DNA from: a virus
Direction: 5' to 3' (one strand)
DNA length: 64,000 nt
Virus record (IMG/VR): IMGVR_UViG_3300039191_000223
Location: 1 to 64,000 of that record
Each line of letters begins with the position of its first letter. Position 1 is the first letter of the stretch. Below are positions 3,433 to 17,917 of this stretch, in pieces. The translations under genes and the position numbers were made by a program. A model generated the notes under the pieces. The model did not search any database. It had not been told where the DNA came from and saw only the letters and a program-made list of their open reading frames with translations.

Positions 3433-3775
3433 CATATTTAAAGGATTCGAACTTTTTCCATTCATTTCGGTCTCTAATATAACGATCAGTTAGCTCTTCG
3501 CCACGATCAGTAAGACGACCATCCTGTATGAGGTTATCTGAGGTTAATACCTCTTTACCCAACGGTGTCAATTCAGCTTGCTTCAAAGTATTGTTTACGC
3601 GAATATACCCGGCACGTATTAGTTCTTTAGAAGCAGCGGTTGCATTACGCGAACCACTTGTAAGATCATACGCCATTTCAGGTGTGGCTGCAATTTCGAT
3701 TGAAGCAATAATAGCCTTCTGGGTATTATCCAGATTCAATCGTTTTTCATGTAAAATAGCGCTTAATGGTCTCAT
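3419..3775 (-). CDS. Small winged-helix-like protein
   Basis: The central part, AYDLTSGSRNATAASKELIRA followed by GYIRVNNT and LTPLGKEVL, has the pattern of a winged helix (recognition helix then beta wing), as in MarR-like or phage transcription factors. The assignment is inferred from residue pattern only. Its start overlaps the stop of the polymerase-like gene upstream (ATGA-type overlap), so they are cotranscribed. Confidence 0.6.
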   Translation of the reverse strand: MRPLSAILHEKRLNLDNTQKAIIASIEIAATPEMAYDLTSGSRNATAASKELIRAGYIRVNNTLKQAELTPLGKEVLTSDNLIQDGRLTDRGEELTDRYIRDRNEWKKFESFKYVNSV

Positions 3776-4341
3776 AGTCTACCTTGTTTAACTAAGTGTA
3801 GTTGCAGTACAATTATAAGAGCATATGGAATGGCGTGTGCTTTACGGATATCCACATGGGTTCTTTTTGTAAACAACTCTGTCCTGAACTTATCAGGGTC
3901 TTGTAAGTATTTATTCAAAAGTGGACGTTTGTGGGGACGAATTAGTGCAAGCACATCTGCCAGAACTTGAACGGAGCGAGGTTTAACTTGTTTTACAACG
4001 TCGAAGTGCTTACCAAGATGAAAAAGCTTCTTGACAACTTTTTCGTCTTCCAGAAGGGACCAATCCGGTTCTTGCTCCTGAAGTTGTAACATTTCATCCT
4101 TAGAATCGAATTGTTTTAATACGTTTACAGTAAGCATATCTATTTTATAGTAACCGAAATCTTCTGCATGGTTATATGGAATAGCAGCGTATCCTGTAAC
4201 AGAATCTACTGGAATATCCTGAAAGTATATACCCACAGGATGCTCTTGTATTACATTTTCTTCCACTCTCGATGCTCTAACAGCCCTACGAAATAAAGAC
4301 TCAACGTCCACACCGGGGGCAAGGTCAATATCAATATCCAT
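3772..4341 (-). CDS. Family C DNA polymerase (DnaE-like) C-terminal fragment
   Basis: The protein starts with MDIDIDLAP, matching the catalytic PDIDIDF motif of bacterial DNA polymerase III alpha, whose two Asp bind metal. It continues with EHPVGIYFQDIP, GYYKIDMLTVNVL and a helical stretch ending RPHKRPLLNKY, which look like the later palm/fingers region. It has only 189 aa, against more than 1000 in DnaE. The preceding part of the same family lies 7 kb away at 11655-12215, ending just before this motif. T4-like phages normally use a family B polymerase, so this split relative may not be a replicase. Confidence 0.6.
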   Translation of the reverse strand: MDIDIDLAPGVDVESLFRRAVRASRVEENVIQEHPVGIYFQDIPVDSVTGYAAIPYNHAEDFGYYKIDMLTVNVLKQFDSKDEMLQLQEQEPDWSLLEDEKVVKKLFHLGKHFDVVKQVKPRSVQVLADVLALIRPHKRPLLNKYLQDPDKFRTELFTKRTHVDIRKAHAIPYALIIVLQLHLVKQGRL

Positions 4342-5062
4342 CTAGTTCTTCTTGTAGTTTACGTGGCAGTGCCTCTCTGGACGCTATTGTACCACTCTCA
4401 GCAAGTCTTTGATAGCTCTCATACGCCTTAGTAACTTTTGCATAGCAACGAATCAACTCTCCATGGTTTTGTACAATTTTGCTGGCTTCCTGCTGCGTAT
4501 CAATACCATCTTCTTCGATAAGCGGAAAAATCGTGCCTTGTCCAGATAGATAATCGATAGCCTGATTCAGGCGCTCCATATATGCCACACTAAGTGATGG
4601 ATGGGGTGATATTTCTTCAATCTTTGCTATATAAACACCATACAACGCATCCCGCACGGCTTGAATCCGGTCGTCTTCAGATAATGTCACAGAGTTCTCC
4701 TGCTCAACAACTCCATCCTCCTTCTCCATAATCTCATATCCGTGTTCATTCAAAACATCTTCAACGAGAGCCTTGACTAATTCGCGATCCACTGAATACT
4801 CATCGTACTTGATCCCAATAAAATCGTGGTCCGTTCTAACTTCCCGTGGCTTTTCGTCATTCAATTTCCGTAGAATCTCCTTGGCTTCGACTTCAGTATG
4901 ATTGGTTTTTGTTACATCACGTACCTGCTTACGCCATTCCTTCCACGCCTCAACGCATTCGGACGAAAGGCCGGAATCACGCAACTGCGTCCAGTTCGAC
5001 CGAGAGAGAAACATATTTCTAGCTTTTGTAATGCTATCCCAAGTAAGTTTCGTATCTTTCAT
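4331..5062 (-). CDS. Tail fibre assembly chaperone-like protein
   Basis: Residues 6-50 (WDSITKARNMFLSRSNWTQ, then WKEWRKQVRDV) match the small phage tail-assembly chaperone domain (R..RN.LL..sDWTQ...W..YR..LRD). The remaining 190 residues are helical and acidic and match nothing I know. I chose the ATG at 5062; the longer ORF runs into the divergent tail-fibre gene. It is back-to-back with that fibre gene across a 47-bp promoter region, which supports a fibre-folding job. Confidence 0.6.
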   Translation of the reverse strand: MKDTKLTWDSITKARNMFLSRSNWTQLRDSGLSSECVEAWKEWRKQVRDVTKTNHTEVEAKEILRKLNDEKPREVRTDHDFIGIKYDEYSVDRELVKALVEDVLNEHGYEIMEKEDGVVEQENSVTLSEDDRIQAVRDALYGVYIAKIEEISPHPSLSVAYMERLNQAIDYLSGQGTIFPLIEEDGIDTQQEASKIVQNHGELIRCYAKVTKAYESYQRLAESGTIASREALPRKLQEELDGY

Positions 5063-5109
5063 GTTTATTATGCCTCTATGATAAATATTGAAAAGCGGAG
5101 AGTAAAACT

Positions 5110-6390
5110 GTGGCAACACCTACCAAAACAGTTCCCTATACACTATATTTACCAGAAAATATAGCTTCTGAAACTTCTGGCATACCGATTGCCAATAAAG
5201 CTGAAGTTCAAATCGGTGGCCTTGTTTTCACGGGGAAGAACCGTATTGAGTATGGTCAATACCGAAACCAAAATTTCCTAAGTCTTCTAGCTAACTTTTC
5301 TAGCCCAGAAGGCACTACACCGGGTGAGCCCGATTCTGATGTTATTTCTAGTCCACTTGTTGGACAAACATGGTACAATCAAACCGATGGTGCATTGTAT
5401 ATTTACACGGGCTCGTGGGTAACACTTGCCAGTACTATTGCATTGAATGCTGATGCTATAACCGTTTCCCCAACAGTCAATGGTCAATCAAATGTGCAAG
5501 CATCACTGACTGACCTAAACACTCGAACCAATACAAATGCCACCAATCTGTCTGACCACATCAATGCAAACCCTGCGCACGCGGCTGCAAATATTAATGT
5601 GTCCCCAGTAGTAAGCGGCGGAAGTAACGTGCAAACCGCACTACAAGGGTTAGAGACAGCCATTGGTGCAATTACTGCAAGTGATGTTGATTTTGCACCA
5701 TATATTAGCATCGGTTCAACAAATGTGCAAGCTGCAATTCAAGAACTTAAGGATGAACTAGACGCTGTATCGGGAGCGGGAGTTACAGCTTCGGCAGTTT
5801 CGGTATCGCCAACAGTCAATGGTCAATCAAATGTGCAAGCATCACTGACTGACCTAAACACTCGAACCAATACAAATGCCACCAATCTTTCTAATCACAT
5901 CAGTGCTAGCCCTGCGCACGCGGCTGCAAATATTAATGTGTCGCCAGTAGTAAGCGGCGGAAACAACGTGCAAACCGCACTACAGGGGTTAGAGGCAGCT
6001 ATTGGCGCAGGTAGTGGTGTTAGCGAAACTGGAACCTCTTCGGGGTTCACACCAAACGCAGGTACAACTATAACTCGTTCGAACCCATTGGCAAGCGCAC
6101 CCGATATAATGCAAGTGGTGCTTGTATGTCAGGTTCCAGAACTCGGCTTTCTTGCCGGAGATATTGTCGTCCTAAACCCACAGGGCGTTGACCGTGACGA
6201 ATCTAGTGGGCCGGGAAAGACAGGCAACTTGCTAGCATACCGTTTAAGCACAAACCAAATTCGTGTATCGCTACAGCATCACAAAAACTCGCAAATTGCA
6301 ATTGCGCCATATAGTGGCGTTGGCTATAACAACCTTCAACAAATCACTCCTGCAAATTGGCAGGGTTTTGTAAAAGCAATCAGATTCTAA
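5110..6390 (+). CDS. Tail fibre / adhesin with duplicated segment
   Basis: Start is GTG (GTG GCA ACA) after GGAGAG, with a GATAAATATT late-promoter-like box at 5080-5087. Residues 40-105 carry YGQYRNQNFLSLLANF and the module GQTWYNQTDGALYIYTGSWV, seen in other virion proteins here. Residues about 120-187 and 233-300 are almost identical copies rich in NVQASL and NTRTNTN, a trimeric shaft-like repeat. The C-terminal 110 residues are likely the receptor-binding head. The next gene looks like its chaperone. Confidence 0.75.
   Translation: MATPTKTVPYTLYLPENIASETSGIPIANKAEVQIGGLVFTGKNRIEYGQYRNQNFLSLLANFSSPEGTTPGEPDSDVISSPLVGQTWYNQTDGALYIYTGSWVTLASTIALNADAITVSPTVNGQSNVQASLTDLNTRTNTNATNLSDHINANPAHAAANINVSPVVSGGSNVQTALQGLETAIGAITASDVDFAPYISIGSTNVQAAIQELKDELDAVSGAGVTASAVSVSPTVNGQSNVQASLTDLNTRTNTNATNLSNHISASPAHAAANINVSPVVSGGNNVQTALQGLEAAIGAGSGVSETGTSSGFTPNAGTTITRSNPLASAPDIMQVVLVCQVPELGFLAGDIVVLNPQGVDRDESSGPGKTGNLLAYRLSTNQIRVSLQHHKNSQIAIAPYSGVGYNNLQQITPANWQGFVKAIRF
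5469..6008 (+). repeat. Two ~200-bp direct repeats inside the tail fibre gene
   Basis: Segments 5469-5669 and 5808-6008 are nearly identical, offset by 339 bp (113 codons). They encode the two shaft repeats. The low divergence points to a recent duplication or gene conversion, and offers a site for length variation by homologous recombination. Confidence 0.85.
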
Positions 6391-6399
6391 GAGGATAAG

Positions 6400-6936
6400 A
6401 TGAATAAACTTTTTGCACTAGAGCTTCTAGGCTTTGAAAATACAGTTGATTTTGAAGTGTTTATCGATGGCTCATTTGAGTGGCTATCCAGCGATGTGAT
6501 GCCAACTGAAAGTGAAATGCAGCAGGCGTGGGATAATCACGCAACTGCACAAGTACCTATCGAACTTGGAAGAAAAAGAATCCAGTCCCTAGATATAGCG
6601 GATGATATGGCTGAACGCAAACGCGCAGAGTATGTTACTATGGGCTCCGGGCAAGCTATGGCATATGAGCAGAAATTTACAGAAGCTCAAACGTTTTTAA
6701 GTGTCGGTGGTGATGTGAACAATTATCCATTTATTAGCATGGAGTCCACAGCGCGTGGTATTGATCCGACAGACTTCGCCAACATTGTTATTCAAAAGCG
6801 AAATGGGTGGGCTCAAATTGGAGCCCAGATCGAAGCACTCCGCTACACAGTTAAGGAAAATATCAAAGTAGCTGCTAATGCTTCCACAATAGCTAGTATA
6901 CTAGAAAGTTATCAAGATAATCTGGATGCACTTTAA
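6400..6936 (+). CDS. Putative tail fibre assembly protein
   Basis: It begins 9 bp after the fibre stop with AGAGGAT as ribosome site. The segment RKRAEYVTMGSGQAMAYEQ followed by KFTEAQ resembles the C-terminal helical region of phage fibre-assembly proteins (DUF4376-like), which act as chaperones for the neighbouring fibre. The N-terminal 60 residues match a fibre-tip cap pattern weakly. Function is inferred mainly from position and this motif. Confidence 0.55.
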   Translation: MNKLFALELLGFENTVDFEVFIDGSFEWLSSDVMPTESEMQQAWDNHATAQVPIELGRKRIQSLDIADDMAERKRAEYVTMGSGQAMAYEQKFTEAQTFLSVGGDVNNYPFISMESTARGIDPTDFANIVIQKRNGWAQIGAQIEALRYTVKENIKVAANASTIASILESYQDNLDAL

Positions 6937-7610
6937 AGCCCTAGTGCTCGCACATTCTTCTTGATTCGGATTACACGCTCGGGTTCTTGCTCGAACTTTA
7001 CACGCCACTTATCAGGGTTGACATATTTTTTCAAAAGTATCTGCTGTTCGCGTGTCATTTCATTTTGCATGAACCACATGAATTTGCTCGAAAACAACAA
7101 GAACCATGGAGACAGTTTCTTAGCCTGAACTACGCGAATCAATGCAGAAGGTTCGATATGAAGAAATACTTCTGCCGGTTCACAATCAAAGATTCTGGAT
7201 AGTTCAGTTATAGTTTCTACACTAATCTGCGTTTGCGCTTCAGGGTCGTGTAGCTCATCAAAGTGATCCATATAATGGTCGTACACAATACGCTGACACC
7301 AATCCTTCGGATGAATATCCAGACTAACCATGTGCTCAATAAATTTGTCTATACCCGGTATTGCCATCTTCCTTGAAAACTTGACGAAGTTAAAGAATGA
7401 AGTGAAAAACTTCGAGTCGATAAATTGTTCCTTGGAGTAAACCCGATGCTTTTTTTGCTTCTGCCAACGACAATAATAGTCGTATGCAGTCATACCATTT
7501 GGTGAGCGTAATAACCTCGTCCGCAACATCTGGCGGCATTCATGTTTCTTGAAGCTTGCCTCTCTGACAAACTTCTTTAAACAGTATTCACATTCAAGGT
7601 ATCCATTCAT
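6933..7610 (-). CDS. Zinc-finger hypothetical protein of the replication block
   Basis: The N-terminus has CEYCLKKFVREASFKKHEC (Cys-x2-Cys ... His-x-x-Cys), a C2H2-like zinc finger. The remaining 200 residues are helical and aromatic, with MTAYDYYCRWQKQKK and a C-terminus NPDKWRVKFEQEPERVIR. It overlaps the gp62 stop by 4 bp and so belongs to the clamp-loader operon. I do not recognise the family beyond a possible DNA- or protein-binding role in replication. Confidence 0.6.
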   Translation of the reverse strand: MNGYLECEYCLKKFVREASFKKHECRQMLRTRLLRSPNGMTAYDYYCRWQKQKKHRVYSKEQFIDSKFFTSFFNFVKFSRKMAIPGIDKFIEHMVSLDIHPKDWCQRIVYDHYMDHFDELHDPEAQTQISVETITELSRIFDCEPAEVFLHIEPSALIRVVQAKKLSPWFLLFSSKFMWFMQNEMTREQQILLKKYVNPDKWRVKFEQEPERVIRIKKNVRALGL

Positions 7611-8071
7611 TTAAATTCTTTCTTGATTTTTTTGAGAGTGTCATCTTGCTCTCCAAGTTCAAAAGCAATCTCTTCAATGTCCTCGTATTCTAACAGAGGA
7701 ACATAGCTCAATGCAATCTCTTTGCTGCACTGGTAGTATCGTACAAGTAGATCAACGGTTGTTGAATACACTTTTCCTTTGCCGTTCTTCTTAATCCAGT
7801 TATACCGTTTCTTCTTACCATCACTGGATATACATGCCAAGTAAAAGAACAGTTCCCTATGATCAGTCATCGATATGTCGAAAAGATAGCGATTCATGAA
7901 CATATTAACTTTTTGAAGTTGAAGCTTAGACTTACAGCCACTCATCCAGAGCATCAACGTATATGGTGCGAGTGATTTTTTCTGCGCATCATTGAGTTCA
8001 CGAAAGTAGGCCAGATCAAACTGATCTACTTTTGTCAACACCTCAAAAATGTCAACTTTGTTTTCACTCAT
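7607..8071 (-). CDS. 62: Sliding-clamp loader small subunit (gp62-like)
   Basis: The 154-aa helical protein lies two genes after gp44. LMLWMSGCKSKLQLQKVNMF, KKKRYNWIKKNGKG and VDLLVRYYQCSKEIALSYV fit the divergent gp62 family, where a basic KYxKWxK-like stretch is followed by a helix of the type LLxxRYQVxxxxAxxY. In T4, one gp62 joins four gp44 to load the gp45 clamp. It overlaps both neighbours by a few bases, as in a tightly coupled operon. T4 gp62 is somewhat longer (187 aa). Confidence 0.75.
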   Translation of the reverse strand: MSENKVDIFEVLTKVDQFDLAYFRELNDAQKKSLAPYTLMLWMSGCKSKLQLQKVNMFMNRYLFDISMTDHRELFFYLACISSDGKKKRYNWIKKNGKGKVYSTTVDLLVRYYQCSKEIALSYVPLLEYEDIEEIAFELGEQDDTLKKIKKEFK

Positions 8072-8372
8072 TAATCTTGAGTTTCTTGTTGCAGAACTTG
8101 CACTGAATATGGTCGCCCTTATGAACCAGAGTTCTGGCAGGATGGACGCATTCGTGAACCATTTTGGATCGAAGATCGGTAATCTCGTCTAGAATAGGTT
8201 GCTTTTTCAAGACGGTATCAAGAGCTTCTTGGTTCAGAGGCTCAAGCTCTCCCAGAAGGTCTTCCATCTTTTTTTCTTTACGACGCCATGCTAACCGCAT
8301 ATTCTTGTCTGCTTCTTTTGAGGCAGCTTCAATCTGATGTTGTACAGTTTCATCATCTATTACTTTAGTCAT
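8064..8372 (-). CDS. Zinc-ribbon hypothetical protein between gp44 and gp62
   Basis: The first 65 residues are helical and charged (coiled-coil-like). The C-terminus HECVHPARTLVHKGDHIQC, then KFCNKKL, contains a His/Cys pair plus Cys-x2-Cys, consistent with a zinc ribbon. It overlaps gp44 and gp62 by 4 and 8 bp. Such placement suggests a replication accessory protein, but I know no assigned function. Confidence 0.6.
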   Translation of the reverse strand: MTKVIDDETVQHQIEAASKEADKNMRLAWRRKEKKMEDLLGELEPLNQEALDTVLKKQPILDEITDLRSKMVHECVHPARTLVHKGDHIQCKFCNKKLKINE

Positions 8373-9310
8373 TCTACTACTCCTGATAATTTAATCATAA
8401 ACGCACTGAAATTTATTTCTGGATCGGCTACCTGACCATGGAAGCGAAGATGCTCCGCAATCAAAATAATACCCTTCATCCAATTCTTAGTGTTCCCATC
8501 AAATCCTTCGACCTGATCTAGGTTGTCATAGAAGAACCGATAGATATCTTCCCATTCATCATTCTCGACACTCTGGACAATACCTTCACGAACATCCAAC
8601 CACTTACCTTTGTTGAGTTGTTCGATCATTCCTACTAGAGCCTTGTCCTTATCGGTTGATTCGAATGCTTCGTAGAGTACACCATCACGAACGTTTCCTT
8701 CCATATTCATGAGTAGCTTACGCATATCAGGATATGCATCCTCAACATAATCTTTTAAAATCTGAACATCTTTTTCATGAAGCTTCACACCTTCCTTTTT
8801 CAGGATGCTATATGCATGGACTGCCATACCTTCCTTATCGAATTCATTGAAGGTGAATTCTTTGCAGCGAGACTTCAACTCAGGTATGATCTTGTGTGGC
8901 TTATTACATGTCAGAATGAAACGCACTGAATCAGAAAACTCTTCCATCATTCTGCGAAGTGCAGCTTGTGCATTCTGTGTTAGATAATCTGCTTCATCCA
9001 GAAAGACAATCTTGAAGTCTCCCATAGGCATTGTCTGGGCAAACCCCTTGACACTATTGCGCACCGTATCTACACTATTATCATCAGACGCATTGATGAC
9101 TTTAAAGTCTGCATCTGGAATATCTAGTTCTGTCTTCAAGATAAAGGCTAAGGTAGTTTTACCTGTTCCACGATGACCTTTCAGCAATAGATGAGGAATA
9201 GATTTATCCTCAATGTATTGTTCAAATGCTTTCTGGTGAGCTTCGCTCTGGAACAAGAATCCGTCGAGAGTACTTGGGCGATATTTTTCAACCCAAAGCT
9301 TCTTTGGCAT
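8369..9310 (-). CDS. 44: Sliding-clamp loader large subunit (AAA+ ATPase)
   Basis: Clear gp44: LWVEKYRPSTLDGF at the start, Walker A GHRGTGKTTLA (about residues 44-54), Walker B IVFLDEADYL, the arginine-finger motif LKSRCKEF and sensor ALRRMMEEFSD. Length 313 aa agrees with T4 gp44 (319 aa). It hydrolyses ATP to open the gp45 clamp onto primer ends. It heads the operon gp44, zinc-ribbon gene, gp62, zinc-finger gene, all overlapping. Confidence 0.97.
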   Translation of the reverse strand: MPKKLWVEKYRPSTLDGFLFQSEAHQKAFEQYIEDKSIPHLLLKGHRGTGKTTLAFILKTELDIPDADFKVINASDDNSVDTVRNSVKGFAQTMPMGDFKIVFLDEADYLTQNAQAALRRMMEEFSDSVRFILTCNKPHKIIPELKSRCKEFTFNEFDKEGMAVHAYSILKKEGVKLHEKDVQILKDYVEDAYPDMRKLLMNMEGNVRDGVLYEAFESTDKDKALVGMIEQLNKGKWLDVREGIVQSVENDEWEDIYRFFYDNLDQVEGFDGNTKNWMKGIILIAEHLRFHGQVADPEINFSAFMIKLSGVVE

Positions 9311-9364
9311 ATTTGTTATCCTTGTTGTTTAGGCGAAGGATTATACGTTATTGTAAGGAAGAAA

Positions 9365-9982
9365 TCAAGAGTATTCTTCTAGTCTACATAGCATTTGATC
9401 GACTTCGGCTCTAAGACCAGTTGAAATAATTCTATCCTCGATTTCTGTGTAAGAATAGTTGTGCTTCTTTGCATTGCTTTTCGTATTAACGACTTCTGAG
9501 AAAGGTTTCATTTCCCTGCCTAGAAACGTGGATATCCTGTCTATATTAATGTCGTGAAGTGGAACTACCAATTTATTAATGGTTGATTCTATGATCATAT
9601 TATGCCATGTGATCCAATAGCGAGTAAAAAAATCTACATAGTTTTGGCCGGGTTGATGCTGCAAATATTTTGCTATGTACTGCAAACTTTTACATTCTTC
9701 AATTACTTGACCAAGGTCAAGAAAGGATTTCACTACAAGAACCGGATCGCGCCAAACATGGAGAGCTATCAAGTTTGGATTGCACTCTTCGATTCGTGCA
9801 AGTTGTGGGGCAACGAACCATGAGCTTTCAGCTTGCCATGTAGTATCTCTAATCACCAAACCATAGTCATCGTTTCTCCAGTTACATACCTGCTCATGAC
9901 CACACGCGATTCCGTTATGTCGGAGCAAATGAGACATGTAACCCGTGCCACCTCGGCCCGTACCAACCACCACATAGTCCAT
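9365..9982 (-). CDS. Sulfotransferase-like protein
   Basis: The N-terminus VVVGTGRGGTGYMSHLLR is the 5'-phosphosulfate-binding P-loop of PAPS sulfotransferases, followed by GHE; HVWRDPVLVVKSFLDLG resembles the 3'-phosphate-binding Arg-Asp-Pro...Ser motif. It would transfer sulfate to a glycan or other acceptor. ATG at 9982 sits 8 nt after GGAGA; a GTG at 9988 is the alternative. It is one of three sulfotransferase-like genes in the window (see 40314 and 51106). Acceptor unknown. Confidence 0.75.
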   Translation of the reverse strand: MDYVVVGTGRGGTGYMSHLLRHNGIACGHEQVCNWRNDDYGLVIRDTTWQAESSWFVAPQLARIEECNPNLIALHVWRDPVLVVKSFLDLGQVIEECKSLQYIAKYLQHQPGQNYVDFFTRYWITWHNMIIESTINKLVVPLHDINIDRISTFLGREMKPFSEVVNTKSNAKKHNYSYTEIEDRIISTGLRAEVDQMLCRLEEYS

Positions 9983-10002
9983 CAACACGTCTCCATTAGG
10001 TA

Positions 10003-10872
10003 TTAATCTTCTTGTTTTCTCATAGAATCAATAATCCCTGAACGGGAATTGGGTGAGGGTGATTGAATACTATCAACCTTTTCAAGTGCTTTAGTTAGTG
10101 CATCCGTAATGTCAACTTGATCACTCTTTATCTGACTCATGACTGAATTGATAGTATCAATATCCATTTCCTGTTGCTTTTTATTAGAGATATTGGCAAA
10201 GCCCACATTCGCCACATAGGTTAATACAACAGCCATGGGGTCAAATATGAATATAACTGCAAGTATGAAATACAGCATCGCATTAGTTGGGTCAAGCCAG
10301 TCTACCGACTCTGCCAATAAAAGGATAGCACCAAACTCAGTTTGTTGCTCAATGCGTTCAAGCTTTATTTCGGATTCTTCTCGTGCTAATTGATCGAGTT
10401 CCTGTACAACGGACTCTTTCTCGGGTGCAAACGTGGCTATAAGCTCCATACGCTTCGATACGTAAGTTTCTGGTACTTCGGCAATCTGTGCATCAATATT
10501 CTCTAAACGTTGCTCTAATCGCTCTCTACGGCTGTCCATTAGCTCTATACGAGCATCGTTCTGGGTAATTGCTAGAGTATCTTTTTGATACGAGCTTGCC
10601 AGATAGCCATACACACCCATTGAAGTTACAGCCATAGCGATAATGATAAGTATGAATAGTACGCTTTTCCACACCCATCCTATGATATCACGAAATTGAT
10701 ATAATGCCGATACTGCCATAACTTTTCCAACCTCAATAACCGCAGCCATGTACATAATCTTGAGGCTAGGTTCAAACAGTTCCCGAAATCCAAGAACTGT
10801 AAACAGCGCAGCGCCAGCAGCAATTGCCAGCGCCACGAGCATAGCTAGTGATGGAAAAATATACGGCTTCAT
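10003..10872 (-). CDS. Membrane protein with cytoplasmic coiled coil
   Basis: Four hydrophobic segments are seen (about residues 5-27, 36-57, 66-90 and 198-222). Residues 95-190 between the third and fourth form a charged coiled coil (ERLEQRLENIDAQIAEV). The C-terminal 55 residues are hydrophilic. Such a protein would sit in the host inner membrane and could hold a replication or anti-exclusion complex there. The family is not recognised with certainty; it resembles large coiled-coil membrane proteins common in marine T4-like phages. Confidence 0.65.
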   Translation of the reverse strand: MKPYIFPSLAMLVALAIAAGAALFTVLGFRELFEPSLKIMYMAAVIEVGKVMAVSALYQFRDIIGWVWKSVLFILIIIAMAVTSMGVYGYLASSYQKDTLAITQNDARIELMDSRRERLEQRLENIDAQIAEVPETYVSKRMELIATFAPEKESVVQELDQLAREESEIKLERIEQQTEFGAILLLAESVDWLDPTNAMLYFILAVIFIFDPMAVVLTYVANVGFANISNKKQQEMDIDTINSVMSQIKSDQVDITDALTKALEKVDSIQSPSPNSRSGIIDSMRKQED

Positions 10873-10889
10873 AACTTCATAACGGTATG

Positions 10890-11225
10890 TTACGCAACTT
10901 CACCCGGAAGATTAACCATATCATCCCATGTTGCGAGAATTGACTCTTCGTTTGTAACCCAATAATCTTTATCAGTGAGTCTAAACTTACTAGTCCATTT
11001 CAAATTCTGAATCAAAACAATATTACCGGGAGCGATTCCTTCTGATACATTGGGGCCTTTGGCAAGTACTCGCACCCAACGGCTGCCTTGAACTTGTTTA
11101 TCTGCCTGTTCTACAATCAAAACACCACCACTAGTTTTTTCGTTGAACTTACCCTGCGTGGTGTCTTCTAAAAATTCAAATACAATCTGATCATTGATCG
11201 GATCAACTTCTGAACGCTGCTTCAT
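10890..11225 (-). CDS. GroES-like co-chaperonin (gp31-type)
   Basis: The beta pattern DQIVFEFLEDTT, then GGVLIVEQA, VRVLAKGPNVSEGI and PGNIVLIQNLKW, follows the GroES fold: first strand, mobile loop (here GKFNEKTSGG), then AVGPG-like and GDxVLF-like segments. T4 gp31 replaces GroES to fold gp23 in GroEL, and this may do the same. It is divergent; a second, much more typical GroES lies at 57413-57706. Confidence 0.75.
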   Translation of the reverse strand: MKQRSEVDPINDQIVFEFLEDTTQGKFNEKTSGGVLIVEQADKQVQGSRWVRVLAKGPNVSEGIAPGNIVLIQNLKWTSKFRLTDKDYWVTNEESILATWDDMVNLPGEVA

Positions 11226-11234
11226 AAAATCTCC

Positions 11235-11609
11235 TTAGTCTTCTGTTTTGCTGCGTCGTACAATTTTCTTACGGCTAGTTCGTTTTGGTTCGGAAGAAGC
11301 TTCCTGAATTGGAGTTGGAGACGAATCTCCCAGAATATCATCGACTGTCGTTTCCTCTGCTTCACGCTGCAACCGTGCTTCGCGGCTTTTCTGTATCTTT
11401 TCACGGGCATCAGATTCGTTACCGCGCTGTTCGTTTTCTAAATCAGAAACATTGCGGCGAGGATTACGACGGCGACGAATATCAATATACTTCTCACGCA
11501 TTTCTACGCTGTCCGGCTTATCGTTGGTTTCAATAGCAGCTTTGACTCGTAGAAGGTCAAAGTCTACAGATTGTCCACGAATGCTTTGAGATTTACGGTT
11601 ATTCGACAT
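11235..11609 (-). CDS. Highly charged hypothetical protein
   Basis: The 124-aa protein is basic at both ends (IRRRRNPRRN, KRTSRKKIVRR) and rich in Ser/Glu between, so probably largely disordered. It lies 9 bp upstream of the GroES-like gene and 30 bp downstream of a perfect TATAAATA late-promoter box, so it is expressed late. No family recognised; nucleic acid or capsid-interior binding is possible. Confidence 0.55.
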   Translation of the reverse strand: MSNNRKSQSIRGQSVDFDLLRVKAAIETNDKPDSVEMREKYIDIRRRRNPRRNVSDLENEQRGNESDAREKIQKSREARLQREAEETTVDDILGDSSPTPIQEASSEPKRTSRKKIVRRSKTED

Positions 11610-11638
11610 TATAATACCTCTTGTTGTTGTTGTGCTTA

Positions 11639-11646
11639 TATTTATA
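11639..11646 (-). promoter_or_regulatory. T4-type late promoter (TATAAATA)
   Basis: On the minus strand this reads exactly TATAAATA, the -10 box used by the phage late sigma gp55 with gp33/gp45 in T4. It lies 30 bp upstream of the gene at 11609, and ahead of the GroES-like gene. Confidence 0.75.
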
Positions 11647-11654
11647 CTAGACCT

Positions 11655-12215
11655 TTAACGGAAAAATTCACCAAGGTCTAAATCATATTTTACACTGTCT
11701 ACTTGATGAATGCCAATTAAGTATAGTATATATGATGCACAAGAACTACCTCTCCCGGTACCCCACACAACCTTATTTTCCTCAAATATATTCACAACGT
11801 AGATCAGTGTACGCAACAACCCAAGTAAGTCTCGTTTCTTCCAAATGCGAAGCTCCATTTTAGTGCGGGATAGACGTTCTTGATATTCGTCTGGAGAAAG
11901 CTTCGCGCGCTTAGCTTCTTTCTGTAACCTTTTCCAGATGTAGTCTGCTACATCTAAGTCTTTGTATCGTTTAGGAATATTCCATTCGGTTGATATGGAA
12001 TTGAATGATGTTTTATATTTAACAACATCATTCTTGAATTTTTTGTTATACGTCTGTATTTCATCAGATTCGTAATCTTCTTTGGAAACGAATAAATCCG
12101 ACGCATCACCACCATCGAGCAGATGTTGATACAGAAACGGCAACTCAGCAATAGAGTCACCGTCCCCGCAAAGGATTCTACCATCCAATATTGTATGAAA
12201 GTTATCGAGTGCCAT
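11655..12215 (-). CDS. Family C DNA polymerase (DnaE-like) N-terminal palm fragment
   Basis: The C-terminus VVWGTGRGSSCASYILYLIG, then IHQVDSVKYDLDLGEFFR, matches DnaE GPGRGSxxGSLVAYxLGITxxDPLxYxLLFERF. The protein stops there, just before the catalytic PDIDIDF motif, which begins the separate gene at 4341. The upstream part (ERLSRTKMELRIWKK and the following helix) fits the DnaE segment before the palm; no PHP domain is visible. Start chosen at 12215 (2 bp after the upstream stop) rather than the longer ORF. Confidence 0.6.
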   Translation of the reverse strand: MALDNFHTILDGRILCGDGDSIAELPFLYQHLLDGGDASDLFVSKEDYESDEIQTYNKKFKNDVVKYKTSFNSISTEWNIPKRYKDLDVADYIWKRLQKEAKRAKLSPDEYQERLSRTKMELRIWKKRDLLGLLRTLIYVVNIFEENKVVWGTGRGSSCASYILYLIGIHQVDSVKYDLDLGEFFR

Positions 12216-12658: not shown

Positions 12659-13156
12659 CTATACCATTAAATCACCAACAAGTGCGCCTTTCAGGTACTT
12701 GTTATAGTTGTCTGTTGGTGCCAAACACACCCAAGCATCAGGACCCACATGGTGACACAACATGGTATGTTTATTTAGCGTCGGATTTCTAATGTGAGCT
12801 TCTGCATGATAATCTACCACAGTAATAGGACCCGCAGTTATTTTACCAGTCTTGTGGTGATAAACGACACCCGTAAACTTTGCCCGTGTCAAATCAGAAA
12901 TTTCAGCAACGTCAAGCTGTGCAGTCTCTTCTGAGAAGACCAGAATATTCCAGTTTGTTGGGGCTTCGATCAAATAACCATCGATCAAAAACTCAAGAGT
13001 GCGAGTGGTCTGTTCTTCAAACATATTCAGTGGCTGTAGAGTAAAATCCATCATGCCATCCATGGATAGTTGCAGTACCCAAAAATAATCTGTTAGAGTA
13101 GGTGTGTCAATACTCTCAATCAATATTGGATACGAGTTTTCATCTGAAATTACCAT
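12659..13156 (-). CDS. Hypothetical protein downstream of UvsW
   Basis: The 165-aa acidic protein is a mixed alpha/beta protein with no membrane segment. It shares a base with the UvsW stop (TAATG), so it is translated with UvsW. The segment HHKTGKITAGPITVVDYHAE has a beta-hairpin look but I cannot name the fold. A role in recombination or replication is inferred from position alone. Confidence 0.6.
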   Translation of the reverse strand: MVISDENSYPILIESIDTPTLTDYFWVLQLSMDGMMDFTLQPLNMFEEQTTRTLEFLIDGYLIEAPTNWNILVFSEETAQLDVAEISDLTRAKFTGVVYHHKTGKITAGPITVVDYHAEAHIRNPTLNKHTMLCHHVGPDAWVCLAPTDNYNKYLKGALVGDLMV

Positions 13157-14649
13157 TAATCATTTTCTCCTTGGAACCATCCCAGATAGTCGATCTTGTC
13201 TGTCTTAAATGGGTAGTTCTTATTTTTATAATGTTTTTTTCTGTTAGCACCGTGTCTCTTAGAGAATTTTAAATCACTGTAAACGTCATAGACCCTTACT
13301 GTATACTTGTCGTGAGCACGGCGTAACCCTCGACCAATACTTTGAATAACCTGAACATAGCTTTTACCCGCATCAATCAAGAATAGATTAAACACTCTCT
13401 TGATATTCAATCCAGTTGATGCTAACGAAAAAGTTGTAATGGCAACGATATCATCGTTGTCTTTATACGAATCATATATCTGTGCTCTTACTGCTTTTGA
13501 ATCTTGTCCGTAGAAGAAAATCGCACCGGGTATCCTCTTTGTAATCTTCTTACCAAATTCTACATTGGGGACAAGAACTAATGTATTCTTCGTTGGCTTA
13601 CTTATTAACTTAGCCAAAAAGTCTAGACGCTCTTCGCGCTTTTGAATGAACTTCTTTTCAGACTGGTAATCAGGAAGATACTTTTCTCGAAACTTGTTGT
13701 ATGTTAGGTCTGCCGCCTGCTCTGGGTTGTCATTACAAAATTCATGATACTCTGCCCGTAAGTCTTCGACCAATTCATACGAGTATAATTTCAGCCGTGC
13801 AAGCCAACCACTGGCAATCAATTCGGATGCTTCTACCTTTTCAACAACGTCACCCAAAGTGACTCGTACATGCATCTGGTCAATTTCATCTTCAGGTATA
13901 GTACCTGTCAATCCCATACGAACAACAGCTTTCTTTGCGTGGTCATTCATGAGTTCTTGTAGAATTTGCCCACGCACTCCGTGGCACTCATCCACAATGA
14001 CAACTTCGAATTGACCAATGATACCTTTGTTGTTATTCAAGGACTGCCATGTACTAACTAGGTGATGGTGCTCTATATCTTTTGTGTTACCACCATAGCG
14101 CCCTACATCAACTCCGTATTCTACCATTTCATTGTACGTTTGGTCAATAAGATCAGACGTTGGAACAATAGTTATTGTTCTAAACCCGTGCTCCTGTTCG
14201 TATGTATGAGCCAGAGCCGCAGTCATTATCGTTTTTCCTGCACCAGTGCCTCCTTCAAAGATGCCTCCCGCTTCACCTATAAGAGCATTTATGCCTCGAA
14301 CTTGATGCTCACCAAGTTCAATATCATACCCCATATCCTTTAAATAATCTTTAGTGACGGGCTTACATACAAGGTCTACGCTCTTGCGATTATCCGTAAG
14401 AGTGATATCATAATCACGCATCCTAAGATAGTCAATGATTTCAGGAAGCAGCTTTACATAAGTCTTACCTAAAGGCTTCTTGAAAAACGCAATGCGACCG
14501 TCCCATATCCCGAGCTTGAATTTGGGGTTGTGCCGATATCCCTTTGCATGGATAGCATGACGGTTATAAAGTTCATCCATATCACCCACAGATAGGCCCT
14601 GAACGGTTGCATATACTTCATCGACAATGTATACAGATGCTTGCTTCAT
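13156..14649 (-). CDS. uvsW: UvsW RNA-DNA/recombination helicase
   Basis: SF2 helicase with Walker A GGTGAGKTIMTAA (about residue 133), DECHG (motif II), LTGTIPED (III), and motif VI QSIGRGLRRAHDKY near the C-terminus. The N-terminal 115 residues form the UvsW substrate-recognition domain, with HAKGYRHNPKFKLGIWDGRI matching T4. It unwinds R-loops and branched DNA, switching replication from origin- to recombination-dependent mode. Length (497 aa) agrees with T4 UvsW (503 aa). Start overlaps the next upstream stop (ATGA). Confidence 0.96.
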   Translation of the reverse strand: MKQASVYIVDEVYATVQGLSVGDMDELYNRHAIHAKGYRHNPKFKLGIWDGRIAFFKKPLGKTYVKLLPEIIDYLRMRDYDITLTDNRKSVDLVCKPVTKDYLKDMGYDIELGEHQVRGINALIGEAGGIFEGGTGAGKTIMTAALAHTYEQEHGFRTITIVPTSDLIDQTYNEMVEYGVDVGRYGGNTKDIEHHHLVSTWQSLNNNKGIIGQFEVVIVDECHGVRGQILQELMNDHAKKAVVRMGLTGTIPEDEIDQMHVRVTLGDVVEKVEASELIASGWLARLKLYSYELVEDLRAEYHEFCNDNPEQAADLTYNKFREKYLPDYQSEKKFIQKREERLDFLAKLISKPTKNTLVLVPNVEFGKKITKRIPGAIFFYGQDSKAVRAQIYDSYKDNDDIVAITTFSLASTGLNIKRVFNLFLIDAGKSYVQVIQSIGRGLRRAHDKYTVRVYDVYSDLKFSKRHGANRKKHYKNKNYPFKTDKIDYLGWFQGEND

Positions 14650-15152: not shown

Positions 15153-15709
15153 TTACGGGTTACTTCACTAAGCATTAGGCTTTGTTTTTGTTCTTCTGTG
15201 AGACCACTTAAATCAAATCCGTCTAAGTGTGGTGGGAGCTTTATTGTAGTAATATCTGGTTCCTCCTGTGCTTGCTTCGCTAACTTTTCAATATCGGGAA
15301 GCAGTTCTTGCAACGTGGCCATTGTAAAGTTCACATCGCGTAGATTATTGTGGAATTCTTTTGGTGTAGAAACACTACGGGCGACGCCAATGGACTTAGC
15401 GGCATCTGCTATTTGATAAGCACTAGAACCGTCATCCAACATTTCCCATGGAACCGTGAAGCTAACCTCAAGTACTAAATCATTGTCAATGTTTGTACCA
15501 GATGGTAGTTTCTGACCTTCTGCCACAAGAGCGGTTCCAGATACCATTATAAAGTTACTGGTGGGAGAGAACCGAAAGATTCTCTCCCACTCAATAAATG
15601 CATCCACTTCATAAATGACCTGAAATGTTTTATAGAGAAGGTCTTCATACTTATTAAGTGTTCTCTTTTCAAACTTCTCTTTTATTTTTAGATCATTCAG
15701 AATCGTCAT
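15149..15709 (-). CDS. Hypothetical protein downstream of UvsX
   Basis: The chosen start MTILNDLKIKEKFEKR overlaps the UvsX end by 17 bp; the longer ORF would overlap it by over 100 bp. It has a basic N-terminal helix, a beta-rich middle (WERIFRFSPTSNFIMVSGTAL) and an acidic C-terminus (PPHLDGFDLSGLTEEQKQSL). It ends by overlapping the UvsY-like gene. No family recognised; cotranscription with uvsX suggests a DNA-repair accessory role. Confidence 0.6.
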   Translation of the reverse strand: MTILNDLKIKEKFEKRTLNKYEDLLYKTFQVIYEVDAFIEWERIFRFSPTSNFIMVSGTALVAEGQKLPSGTNIDNDLVLEVSFTVPWEMLDDGSSAYQIADAAKSIGVARSVSTPKEFHNNLRDVNFTMATLQELLPDIEKLAKQAQEEPDITTIKLPPHLDGFDLSGLTEEQKQSLMLSEVTRK

Positions 15710-16847
15710 CAGAATCCTCAAGCGCTTCATTAGCTTTACGTTGACGCCGTGCCTTACCAGACTCCTGTGTTTCTTCGCTTGGTTTATCAAGTTCAGACAA
15801 ATATTCATCTAGAATTGGCTCTAGAACCAATTCTTCATCATTAGCCTTACAGCACAATGTGAGAATAGCTTCCATCGTATCTGGATCATTCTCTGCTGTT
15901 TTACGCTGGAACTTAGGCATATCAGCATTATCATTTGCGAATGAGTACCATGCGTTATTTTTTATAACTACGCCAAGCTGCTCAGCAATTTCAAGAAGAC
16001 CCGCATACGGATCAAGTCCATCTTTAAACGGTACTTCAATTTTTGCAACTTGCTTTTCTTTAGTATGGCGATTCTTGTAACTCTTAGCTTTCAGTGTGAA
16101 GCCCTTGTGCTCTTTAGTCGCCTTGTCCTTGAACTGAAGCTTTTCGACAACTATAATTTGTGAGCACGGATACTTCAGCGATTCCGTAAACACCCAAGGT
16201 TCTTCATAGGCTTTGAATTTATCCTGCTCAACATATACCTGCTTAGAACAAATGATTGTAATGTTCAGTGTACTTATAGAATGAGTCCAAGACAGTAGCA
16301 TGCGCTTAAGCTGCTTTGCTCGCTGACCCTGATCACCACCAAGATCACCTACAGTATTGATATCTTTCGTCTCACTGTCTGTGAACAAGTTATCCAACGA
16401 ATCAACGAAAATAACTACTCGCGTGTCATCACCCGATTCCGCATAGTCACGGATAAAGTTATTAACGATCCTACTACAATGGGTAATTTCTGACGTGCCT
16501 TCACGCAAAAAACGGCTCATCGTATCTTCATCAGTAACATCAATACCAACACCCGCCAAGAAACGATTATCAATAGCGCCTTCACTATCTATTACAATAC
16601 CGATACCACCGTTTTTTAGGTTATGTGCCAAAATAGATGCTCCTACCAAACTCTTACCAGAGCTTGAGTGTCCACCAAATGATACAATCCTTCCCTGTGG
16701 AGCACCACCCTCGAATTTACCAGACATTAGTCTGTTGAGAGAATAGCTTCCAGTATGTAGGTAATAGGTTGGGTCGGGTAGTAATTTTGCATTGCGGGCC
16801 TTATCTTTTTCAACTGCTTTCTTATACTTCTTCATAAAATCTGACAT
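15693..16847 (-). CDS. uvsX: UvsX RecA-like recombinase
   Basis: RecA fold with Walker A GGHSSSGKSLVGAS, Walker B VVIFVDSLDNLF, and the typical T4-like segments TGSYSLNRLMSGKFEGG and DSEGAIDNRFLAGVGID. The ATG at 16847 has a GGAGAT ribosome site; the longer ORF runs into the terminator. The product (384 aa) is close to T4 UvsX (391 aa). It catalyses strand exchange for recombination-dependent replication with gp32. It ends in TGA, which is relevant to the in-frame TGA codons discussed elsewhere. Confidence 0.96.
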   Translation of the reverse strand: MSDFMKKYKKAVEKDKARNAKLLPDPTYYLHTGSYSLNRLMSGKFEGGAPQGRIVSFGGHSSSGKSLVGASILAHNLKNGGIGIVIDSEGAIDNRFLAGVGIDVTDEDTMSRFLREGTSEITHCSRIVNNFIRDYAESGDDTRVVIFVDSLDNLFTDSETKDINTVGDLGGDQGQRAKQLKRMLLSWTHSISTLNITIICSKQVYVEQDKFKAYEEPWVFTESLKYPCSQIIVVEKLQFKDKATKEHKGFTLKAKSYKNRHTKEKQVAKIEVPFKDGLDPYAGLLEIAEQLGVVIKNNAWYSFANDNADMPKFQRKTAENDPDTMEAILTLCCKANDEELVLEPILDEYLSELDKPSEETQESGKARRQRKANEALEDSDDDSE

Positions 16848-16878
16848 ATTATCTCCAATGAATGATTGTTGTAGAACA

Positions 16879-16902
16879 GAAGGGGGCGTTTCCGCCCCCT
16901 TC
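16879..16902 (-). terminator. Strong hairpin after gp32
   Basis: A perfect 10-bp inverted repeat (GAAGGGGGCG / CGCCCCCTTC, loop 4 nt) lies 20 bp beyond the gp32 stop and ahead of uvsX. The run after the stem on the minus strand is TGTTCT, only moderately U-rich, so it may attenuate rather than fully stop transcription, or protect the gp32 mRNA end. Confidence 0.65.
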
Positions 16903-16921
16903 ATGTAGTTACTACTAACGA

Positions 16922-17917
16922 TTAACTACGAAGCTGAGACAAAATATCATCATCATCATCATCATCATCGTCATCACCATCCACCAAACCAGCAAGAGGG
17001 TTATCAGAATCATCATCGGGCGTATCTTTAGACACAGGTTCGTCCTTTTCCTTTTCCTTTTCCTTTTCCTTTTCCTTTTCCTCTTCTGCCACAGGCTCTT
17101 CAGCCTTTTTATTCTTGCTCTGTTGACGCTTGAGTTTTTCCATCAAATCGTCTTCAGAGGTCGTTTTATCATCACCATCACCATCGTCAGATTCACCCAT
17201 CAACGACTTCAGATGCTTCTGAAGTGTTGCGTCGGCCTCATCGTAAGACGGGATTTCAGATAGAAGTGCAGAGAGAGGCTCTTCGGGAATTTCACTGCGC
17301 CAATCATCAGGCACAGCAGAAGGCTTACGGACAAATCCACTGGACAAGTCATACTTGCCGTATTCTTGACCACCCTTGCCCATTTGCTTATCTTTAACGA
17401 TAGCAAAGTCAAGACCTTCTTCCAAGTCCCAGAACAGATCATCATCCTCAAGCTTAGCAATCTCTGCCTTGAGCTTGTTGAAAATCTGATAGCTGAACTT
17501 GAATACCTTTACCTTACCCTTGGCAGTCTCTTCACCATCACTATATTCAAGACCGTCCTTGGTTACAACAGCACGCAGCACTGCGTACATATCGCGATAG
17601 TAGTACTTGCCCTTATCTTCGTTACCGGCGTCATAGAACTTCTTTGCCAAATCACAGATCGGGCAGTTATGATCTTTACCTTTGTTTCGAAGACACGGGA
17701 CACGGACGACATCATCACCAATGTGAAGACGGTGCTCCATGAATGTCACATATACTGCAAGGGGGTTATCTTCATTCGGGTCTTCGAGAATTCGAACTTT
17801 CGTAGTACCGTCGAAGGGGAGTTTCCAGTGCGGGTAGAAAAGGCTTCCTGAGTTGTTGCTGTCCTTTCCCTCGTTGTTAATCTTATCCTGCAATGCTTTC
17901 AATGAACGTCTAGCCAT
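16922..17917 (-). CDS. 32: Single-stranded DNA-binding protein gp32
   Basis: The N-terminus MARRSLKALQDKINN matches the gp32 B domain (LAST-like). The core has the zinc site: His in HIGDDVVRVPCLRNKG, then DHNCPICDL, equivalent to T4 His64-Cys77-Cys87-Cys90. KYYYRDMYAVLRAVV and VFKFSYQIFNKL are the OB-fold strands. The C-terminal acidic tail is exaggerated, with Lys-Glu repeats (17043-17085, an exact 6-bp tandem repeat) and an Asp run. It coats ssDNA and recruits UvsX, UvsY and the helicase loader. Confidence 0.95.
   Translation of the reverse strand: MARRSLKALQDKINNEGKDSNNSGSLFYPHWKLPFDGTTKVRILEDPNEDNPLAVYVTFMEHRLHIGDDVVRVPCLRNKGKDHNCPICDLAKKFYDAGNEDKGKYYYRDMYAVLRAVVTKDGLEYSDGEETAKGKVKVFKFSYQIFNKLKAEIAKLEDDDLFWDLEEGLDFAIVKDKQMGKGGQEYGKYDLSSGFVRKPSAVPDDWRSEIPEEPLSALLSEIPSYDEADATLQKHLKSLMGESDDGDGDDKTTSEDDLMEKLKRQQSKNKKAEEPVAEEEKEKEKEKEKEKDEPVSKDTPDDDSDNPLAGLVDGDDDDDDDDDDILSQLRS

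What the first reader, a model, noticed from the sequence alone, without database searches (positions are those of the whole stretch)
3772..12215. Family C polymerase split exactly before its catalytic motif into two distant genes
The gene at 11655-12215 ends with the GxGRGS ... YDLxxxEFF stretch of DnaE and stops there. The gene at 3772-4341 begins with the next DnaE motif, MDIDIDL with both metal-binding Asp. About 7 kb and nine genes separate them. This is not what gradual decay gives; it suggests fission by rearrangement or a two-chain protein. T4-like phages normally have a family B polymerase, so the purpose is unclear.
Basis: partly seen in the sequence, partly recalled or inferred. Interest (0 to 1): 0.75.

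Follow-up and report, generated by a model that had tools for sequence, protein, structure and literature searches.

The report
Two-gene minimal phage DNA polymerase
This T4-like phage encodes a stripped-down relative of the bacterial replicative DNA polymerase as two separate proteins whose catalytic centre would have to be rebuilt from both; the arrangement is real and conserved in hundreds of large phages, but it was already described by computation in 2021 and has, as far as I found, never been tested at the bench.

Summary
Confirmed. The gene at 11655-12215 (-) is the first part of a family C (DnaE / Pol III alpha) palm. The gene at 3772-4341 (-) starts exactly at the catalytic DxDxD motif and carries the rest. 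All catalytic positions are present, and invariant in 57-58 environmental homologues. AlphaFold models of each half (pLDDT 92) find Pol III alpha as the best PDB match. The split is not local rearrangement or decay: 12 of 12 phages examined, including this contig, carry one copy of each half, the break is in the same place in every homologue, and the two trees agree. All 11 other phages also have a family B polymerase. No intein is present.
This was published: Iyer et al. 2021 (PMC7824862) describe the split minimal Pol III alpha of group 2.2 jumbo phages. My additions: the pair lacks PHP, thumb and most of the fingers, and no third gene with the missing parts was found; the N-half travels with the clamp loader and the C-half with UvsW and primase-helicase; a DnaQ-like exonuclease often sits near the C-half; and a marine clade has the C-half beside an intact PHP-less mini-DnaE. 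Polymerase activity is inferred, not shown.

The parts
11655..12215 (-). N-half of the split family C polymerase core (186 aa): helical palm part and GxGRGSS motif; ends right after YDLDLGEFFR
   Evidence: PF07733 E=1.2e-9; PHROG_11127 E=5.6e-44; hhalign vs bacterial DnaE E=1.4e-9; AlphaFold pLDDT 92.1 and Foldseek top 10 all Pol III alpha
3772..4341 (-). C-half (189 aa): catalytic DxDxD at residues 2-6, HxxG, KxD (D68), LAxxLAxIRPxK and KxHAxxYA motifs
   Evidence: PHROG_11778 E=4.4e-61; hhalign vs DnaE E=1e-9; AlphaFold pLDDT 92.1, Foldseek top 15 all family C polymerases; catalytic residues invariant in 57-58 sequences
11235..11609 (-). hypothetical gene directly downstream of the N-half, at the place of GAP32_324
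   Evidence: position only for this window; homologues of GAP32_324 adjoin the N-half in 53 of 80 IMG/VR loci
10890..11225 (-). GroES / gp31-like co-chaperonin, conserved neighbour of the N-half
   Evidence: PHROG_3188 E=9e-6; gp31-like neighbour in 59 of 80 N-half loci
8369..9310 (-). gp44-type clamp loader ATPase, conserved neighbour of the N-half
   Evidence: PHROG_168 E=4.1e-75; neighbour in 63 of 80 N-half loci
7607..8071 (-). gp62-like clamp loader small subunit
   Evidence: PHROG_225 E=1.1e-7
6933..7610 (-). conserved protein of unknown function (PHROG_11058) in the same block
   Evidence: PHROG_11058 E=1.7e-48
13156..14649 (-). UvsW-type helicase upstream of the N-half
   Evidence: PHROG_16 E=9.3e-68
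15693..16904 (-). UvsX recombinase
   Evidence: PHROG_97 E=2.1e-47
16922..17917 (-). gp32-type single-strand DNA binding protein
   Evidence: PHROG_1192 E=1.2e-28

Best explanation
The two genes encode the two chains of a minimal family C DNA polymerase core. Chain 1 gives the helical palm part and the GxGRGSS loop that in Pol III alpha holds the nucleotide triphosphate. Chain 2 gives the strand with the metal-binding Asp pair (D2 and D4, equal to E. coli D401 and D403), the third Asp (D68, equal to D555) and a reduced fingers module. Neither chain alone has a complete active site, so they most likely associate into a heterodimer that rebuilds the palm. The PHP domain, the thumb, most of the fingers and all C-terminal domains are missing. 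The dimer probably acts with the phage's T4-type clamp, clamp loader and helicase-primase, next to the family B replicase, as a second polymerase (gap filling, lagging-strand or repair synthesis). Shown: sequence homology, invariant catalytic residues, conserved break point, co-occurrence, vertical inheritance, replication-gene context. Inferred: physical association, nucleotidyl transfer, division of labour with the family B enzyme. My confidence is about 0.9 that the pair is this conserved split family C module, and about 0.55 that it is an active polymerase.
For: Homology of both halves to DnaE by HMM, profile-profile and fold. Catalytic D2, D4, D6 in 57 of 57 covered rows, and H34, K66, D68 and H169 in 58 of 58; N-half R155, G156 and S157 in 43 of 43. 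These map on residues invariant in bacterial DnaE: E. coli R362, G363, S364, D401, D403, D405, H511, K553, D555, R639, P640, H760. Both halves occur once each in 12 of 12 phage records. The split N-half ORFs end 0-8 residues after the EF[FL] motif, and C-halves start 1-20 residues before DxDxD, so nothing of note is lost at the break. Mirror correlation r=0.73 over 22 genomes, 0 of 2000 permutations as high, with matching clades. The N-half sits with the gp44 clamp loader in 63 of 80 loci; the C-half sits with UvsW, primase and gp41 helicase in 45-56 of 79. A DnaQ-family exonuclease lies 2.3-4.7 kb from the C-half in 6 of the 8 genomes that have one. The same inference was published in PMC7824862.
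Against: No complex could be modelled here. The thumb (in the 106-residue E. coli stretch that is about 27 residues here) and most of the fingers are missing, so DNA binding is hard to picture. A family B replicase is present in all complete relatives, so a second polymerase is not obviously needed. Pfam's finger model does not reach its cut-off in the C-half. One 148 kb contig (G002) has gp32, UvsX, UvsW, primase, helicase, a family B polymerase and the N-half but no detectable C-half; it is not closed, so this is open.
Confidence: 0.7

Rival explanations
1. The pair forms a complex with nucleotidyl transfer activity, but not a genuine DNA polymerase: for example a short-patch or untemplated nucleotidyltransferase, or a primer-extending factor handing over to the family B enzyme.
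For: Catalytic residues are strictly kept, while the thumb and most of the fingers are gone and no third gene supplying them was found.
Against: The finger motifs RPxK and KxHAxxYA are kept; genes of the clamp loader, primase-helicase and a DnaQ-type exonuclease are the standing neighbours.
Confidence: 0.25
2. The pair is a non-catalytic replisome scaffold or regulator that kept the fold of the Pol III palm.
For: A family B replicase is present anyway; the minimal size argues against a processive enzyme; each half sits in a different part of the replisome gene set.
Against: All three catalytic Asp are invariant in 57-58 divergent sequences, which is not expected of a scaffold.
Confidence: 0.13
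3. Fission or decay in this phage: the halves are relics of a host-type DnaE broken by rearrangement.
For: Two + strand ORFs (5110-6936, at least one virion-like) lie between the halves in this window.
Against: Same break and both halves in 11 other phages and several hundred IMG/VR stretches; invariant catalytic residues; concordant trees.
Confidence: 0.01
4. Trans-splicing by a split intein rejoins the two halves into one chain, as in cyanobacterial DnaE.
For: Split inteins are known in cyanobacterial DnaE, and a split PolB with an intein is reported for phage MIJ3.
Against: The N-halves end 0-8 residues after the conserved motif and the C-halves start 1-20 residues before theirs: no room for intein halves.
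Confidence: 0.01

Closest known systems
Split minimal DNA polymerase III alpha of group 2.2 jumbo phages (Iyer et al. 2021, PMC7824862, sections 3.4.1 and 3.5, Fig. 3b)
   Same: [quoted passage not shown] The present pair belongs here; XacN1 (57% and 45% identity) and Atu_ph07 are relatives.
   Different: The own contig is a 102.7 kb fragment, so its genome size and its family B polymerase could not be checked. Also, a 141 kb complete phage (Slicko01) carries the pair, so it is not limited to jumbo genomes.
Bacterial DnaE / Pol III alpha (E. coli, Thermus)
   Same: Palm motifs GxGRGS, DxDxD, HxxG, KxD, RP, SH (E. coli R362-S364, D401-D405, H511, K553-D555, R639-P640, H760).
   Different: One chain of about 1160 aa with PHP, thumb, full fingers and C-terminal domains; here 375 aa in two chains without them.
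PHP-less compact DnaE of phages (for example the 565 aa protein of L165, the 575 aa frame of LR756508, DnaE-like proteins of Streptomyces phages)
   Same: Reduced family C polymerase of phages.
   Different: Single chain and larger; scores on PF07733 and PF17657. It co-exists with the C-half in a marine clade.
Cyanobacterial split-intein DnaE and 'fractured genes' with split inteins (Dassa et al. 2009, cited in PMC6892783)
   Same: A polymerase gene in two distant pieces.
   Different: Those are rejoined by intein trans-splicing; there is no intein here.
T4-like phages with gene 43 (family B) in two ORFs, e.g. Aeromonas phages (own knowledge, a lead only)
   Same: A replicative polymerase made as two chains.
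   Different: Different polymerase family and fold.

Membership tests
Split minimal Pol III alpha of group 2.2 jumbo phages | N-terminal palm piece as a separate gene | tested here: met
   PHROG_11127 E=5.6e-44, PF07733 E=1.2e-9
Split minimal Pol III alpha of group 2.2 jumbo phages | C-terminal piece with catalytic Asp as a separate distant gene | tested here: met
   PHROG_11778 E=4.4e-61; 7.3 kb away with 11 ORFs between
Split minimal Pol III alpha of group 2.2 jumbo phages | Companion family B polymerase | tested here: inconclusive
   Present in 11 of 11 relatives; not found in the own 102.7 kb fragment
Split minimal Pol III alpha of group 2.2 jumbo phages | T4-type replication genes (gp44, UvsX, UvsW, gp32) | tested here: met
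Split minimal Pol III alpha of group 2.2 jumbo phages | Genome over 200 kb | not testable with these tools
   Own record is a 102,699-base virus fragment; Slicko01 with 141 kb shows the feature is not required
Family C DNA polymerase (DnaE) | Catalytic Asp triad | tested here: met
   D2, D4, D68 invariant, matching E. coli D401, D403, D555
Family C DNA polymerase (DnaE) | Palm fold | tested here: met
   Foldseek best matches are Pol III alpha for each half; TM-scores on the query are modest, 0.33-0.44
Family C DNA polymerase (DnaE) | PHP domain | tested here: not met
   Absent from both chains; no PHP match in the own contig, whole Slicko01 genome or neighbourhoods
Family C DNA polymerase (DnaE) | Thumb domain and full fingers | tested here: not met
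   Spacings 27 vs 106 and 32 vs 120 residues; no third gene
Family C DNA polymerase (DnaE) | DNA polymerase activity | not testable with these tools
   needs biochemistry
Split-intein DnaE | Intein halves at the break | tested here: not met
   ORF ends

The most novel reading that the evidence does not exclude
An obligate two-chain, thumb-less family C DNA polymerase whose catalytic centre is completed only when both chains meet. It would serve as a second replicase beside a family B enzyme in one phage replisome, with a separate DnaQ-type proofreader, one chain encoded with the clamp loader and the other with the helicase-primase.
Probability: 0.4. Interest if true: 0.7.

Novelty: new member of a known kind. 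Interest (0 to 1): 0.42.

Why it matters
If active, this would be about the smallest family C polymerase known, with its active site shared between two gene products, and a case of two unrelated replicative polymerase families in one phage replisome. The published description is computational, and I found no experimental follow-up in the papers searched. Both genes together are only about 1.1 kb and are present in phages that grow on laboratory E. coli (Escherichia phages Sharanji on K12 MG1655 and EC22.5-2 on ATCC 25922), so the question is directly testable.

Tried and rejected
Third gene carrying the missing thumb, PHP or finger pieces: none in the whole Slicko01 genome, the whole own contig or about 190 neighbourhoods, at HMM sensitivity only. 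Split intein: rejected by ORF ends. Fused or unsplit N+C gene: no ORF matches both halves; the long ORFs hit by the N profile are a different, intact mini-DnaE. 'N-half-only' phages: 9 of 23 large contigs lacked the C-half, but 8 of these 9 also lack the gp41 helicase that normally accompanies it, so they are probably fragments; only G002 stays open. The C-half profile against PDB sequences gave nothing at E<=1, so fold and profile-profile comparison had to carry that link. Complex prediction was not possible with the tools.
Full report
1. Observation. The upstream one (ATG at 12215, stop at 11655) matches PF07733 (E=1.2e-9) and PHROG_11127 'DNA polymerase' (E=5.6e-44) and stops after GTGRGSSCASYILYLIGIHQVDSVKYDLDLGEFFR. 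The downstream one (3772-4341) begins MDIDIDL; its ATG overlaps the end of the preceding ORF. It matches PHROG_11778 'DNA polymerase' (E=4.4e-61) but no Pfam family. Eleven ORFs lie between the two, including two + strand ORFs (5110-6390, 6400-6936).

2. Is the C-half really DnaE? Sequence search of the PDB with its profile gave nothing, so three other tests were made. Profile-profile alignment of 58 C-halves with 8 bacterial DnaE sequences gave 96.5% probability, E=1e-9, from the HxxG motif to RPxK. AlphaFold2 with an alignment of window and IMG/VR sequences gave mean pLDDT 92.1, and the first 15 Foldseek PDB matches were all family C polymerases, the best at E=1.8e-4. The residues invariant in the C-halves (D2, D4, D6, H34, K66, D68, R135, P136, H169) line up in order and kind with residues invariant in the DnaE set (E. 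coli D401, D403, D405, H511, K553, D555, R639, P640, H760). The N-half is easier: hmmsearch of the PDB finds E. coli Pol III alpha 214-392 at E=7e-8, hhalign E=1.4e-9, and the Foldseek top 10 are all Pol III alpha, although the best E is only 7.8e-3.

3. What is missing. E. coli alpha has 106 residues between D405 and H511, where the thumb and part of the palm lie (domain limits from own knowledge of Lamers et al. 2006); the C-halves have 24-28. Between P640 and H760 E. coli has 120 residues; the C-halves have 32-38. The C-half ends just after the SH-motif helix. There is no PHP domain in front of the N-half. HMMs of the missing pieces found no third gene in the whole 141 kb Slicko01 genome, the whole own contig, or the other loci held. 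The pair is therefore a minimal palm plus reduced fingers, not a DnaE simply cut in two.

4. Conservation of the split. Eleven named phages and the own contig have exactly one N-half and one C-half each. No ORF in the loci examined joins the two. Apart from intact mini-DnaE proteins and E. coli DnaE, the N-halves stop 0-8 residues after EF[FL]; the C-halves start 1-20 residues before DxDxD. This leaves no room for an intein and places the break in the linker between the two motifs. Gene trees of both halves for 22 genomes agree on the main groups, and the distance matrices correlate (r=0.73, 0 of 2000 permutations as high). This fits one old split inherited together; correlation by itself is also expected from common phage descent. 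Where both halves lie on one fetched stretch, the N-half is 5-9 kb upstream on the same strand; in GAP32 and 121Q-type phages they are 31-34 kb apart.

5. Setting. With GAP32 proteins as probes, the N-half is followed by a small conserved gene (53 of 80 loci), a gp31/GroES-like gene (59) and the gp44 clamp loader (63). The C-half is preceded by conserved unknown genes (61-73 of 79) and UvsW (56) and followed by primase (51) and gp41 helicase (45). The window shows the N-half side of this set: UvsX, UvsW, gp32, GroES-like, gp44, gp62-like and PHROG_11058. A DnaQ-type exonuclease is found in 8 of 12 records and lies 2.3-4.7 kb from the C-half in six of them, in two different arrangements. GAP32's copy is annotated as a DNA polymerase exonuclease subunit. 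Every one of the 11 other records has a family B polymerase; the own contig shows none, but it is incomplete.

6. Mechanism. The most likely reading is a heterodimer that rebuilds the Pol III palm, since neither chain has a complete site. Strict conservation of all three Asp argues for chemistry. Lack of a thumb argues against a processive enzyme by itself; the clamp may compensate, or the role may be short synthesis. Association and activity are inferred.

7. Known or new. Iyer et al. [quoted passage not shown] The window is a new member. Apparent additions here: the explicit thumb loss and the search for a third gene, the fixed break point and concordant inheritance, the two-cluster synteny, the DnaQ neighbour, presence in a 141 kb phage, and a marine clade in which the C-half lies a few kb upstream of an intact PHP-less mini-DnaE with no N-half in the fragments held (38 loci). 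The literature search covered open-licence papers only.

Noticed in passing
L165:9971-10582 and 16079-17806 (also L146, L148, L156, L161, L187, L244-L322 in part): A marine phage clade carries the C-half a few kb upstream of an intact, single-chain, PHP-less mini-DnaE of about 565 aa with all catalytic residues; 38 loci from the mini-DnaE search show both, and no N-half was found on the fragments.
   Followed up: partly
G002 (L049, L236-L243), 147.6 kb contig: Has N-half, gp32, UvsX, UvsW, primase, gp41 helicase and family B polymerase, but no detectable C-half or gp44; either lost, relocated beyond the contig or very divergent.
   Followed up: partly
W06 (Slicko01) 3529-5033; W04 (Atu_ph07) 212336-213688; G013 101670-104245: The family B polymerase match is spread over two or three separate open frames in these records, so PolB may itself be split there.
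   Followed up: no
W01, W02, W07-W10: A DnaQ-family exonuclease gene lies within 5 kb of the C-half in two different arrangements, a candidate proofreading partner.
   Followed up: partly
window 5110-6936: Two + strand ORFs, the first with a weak virion-structural match, sit inside the - strand replication block between clamp loader genes and C-half; the neighbouring - strand ORF 4331-5119 has a tail-assembly chaperone match. They look like inserted structural genes.
   Followed up: no
L276:1953-3632: One mini-DnaE gene has a single in-frame stop in the middle; probably a sequencing or assembly error, or a broken gene.
   Followed up: no
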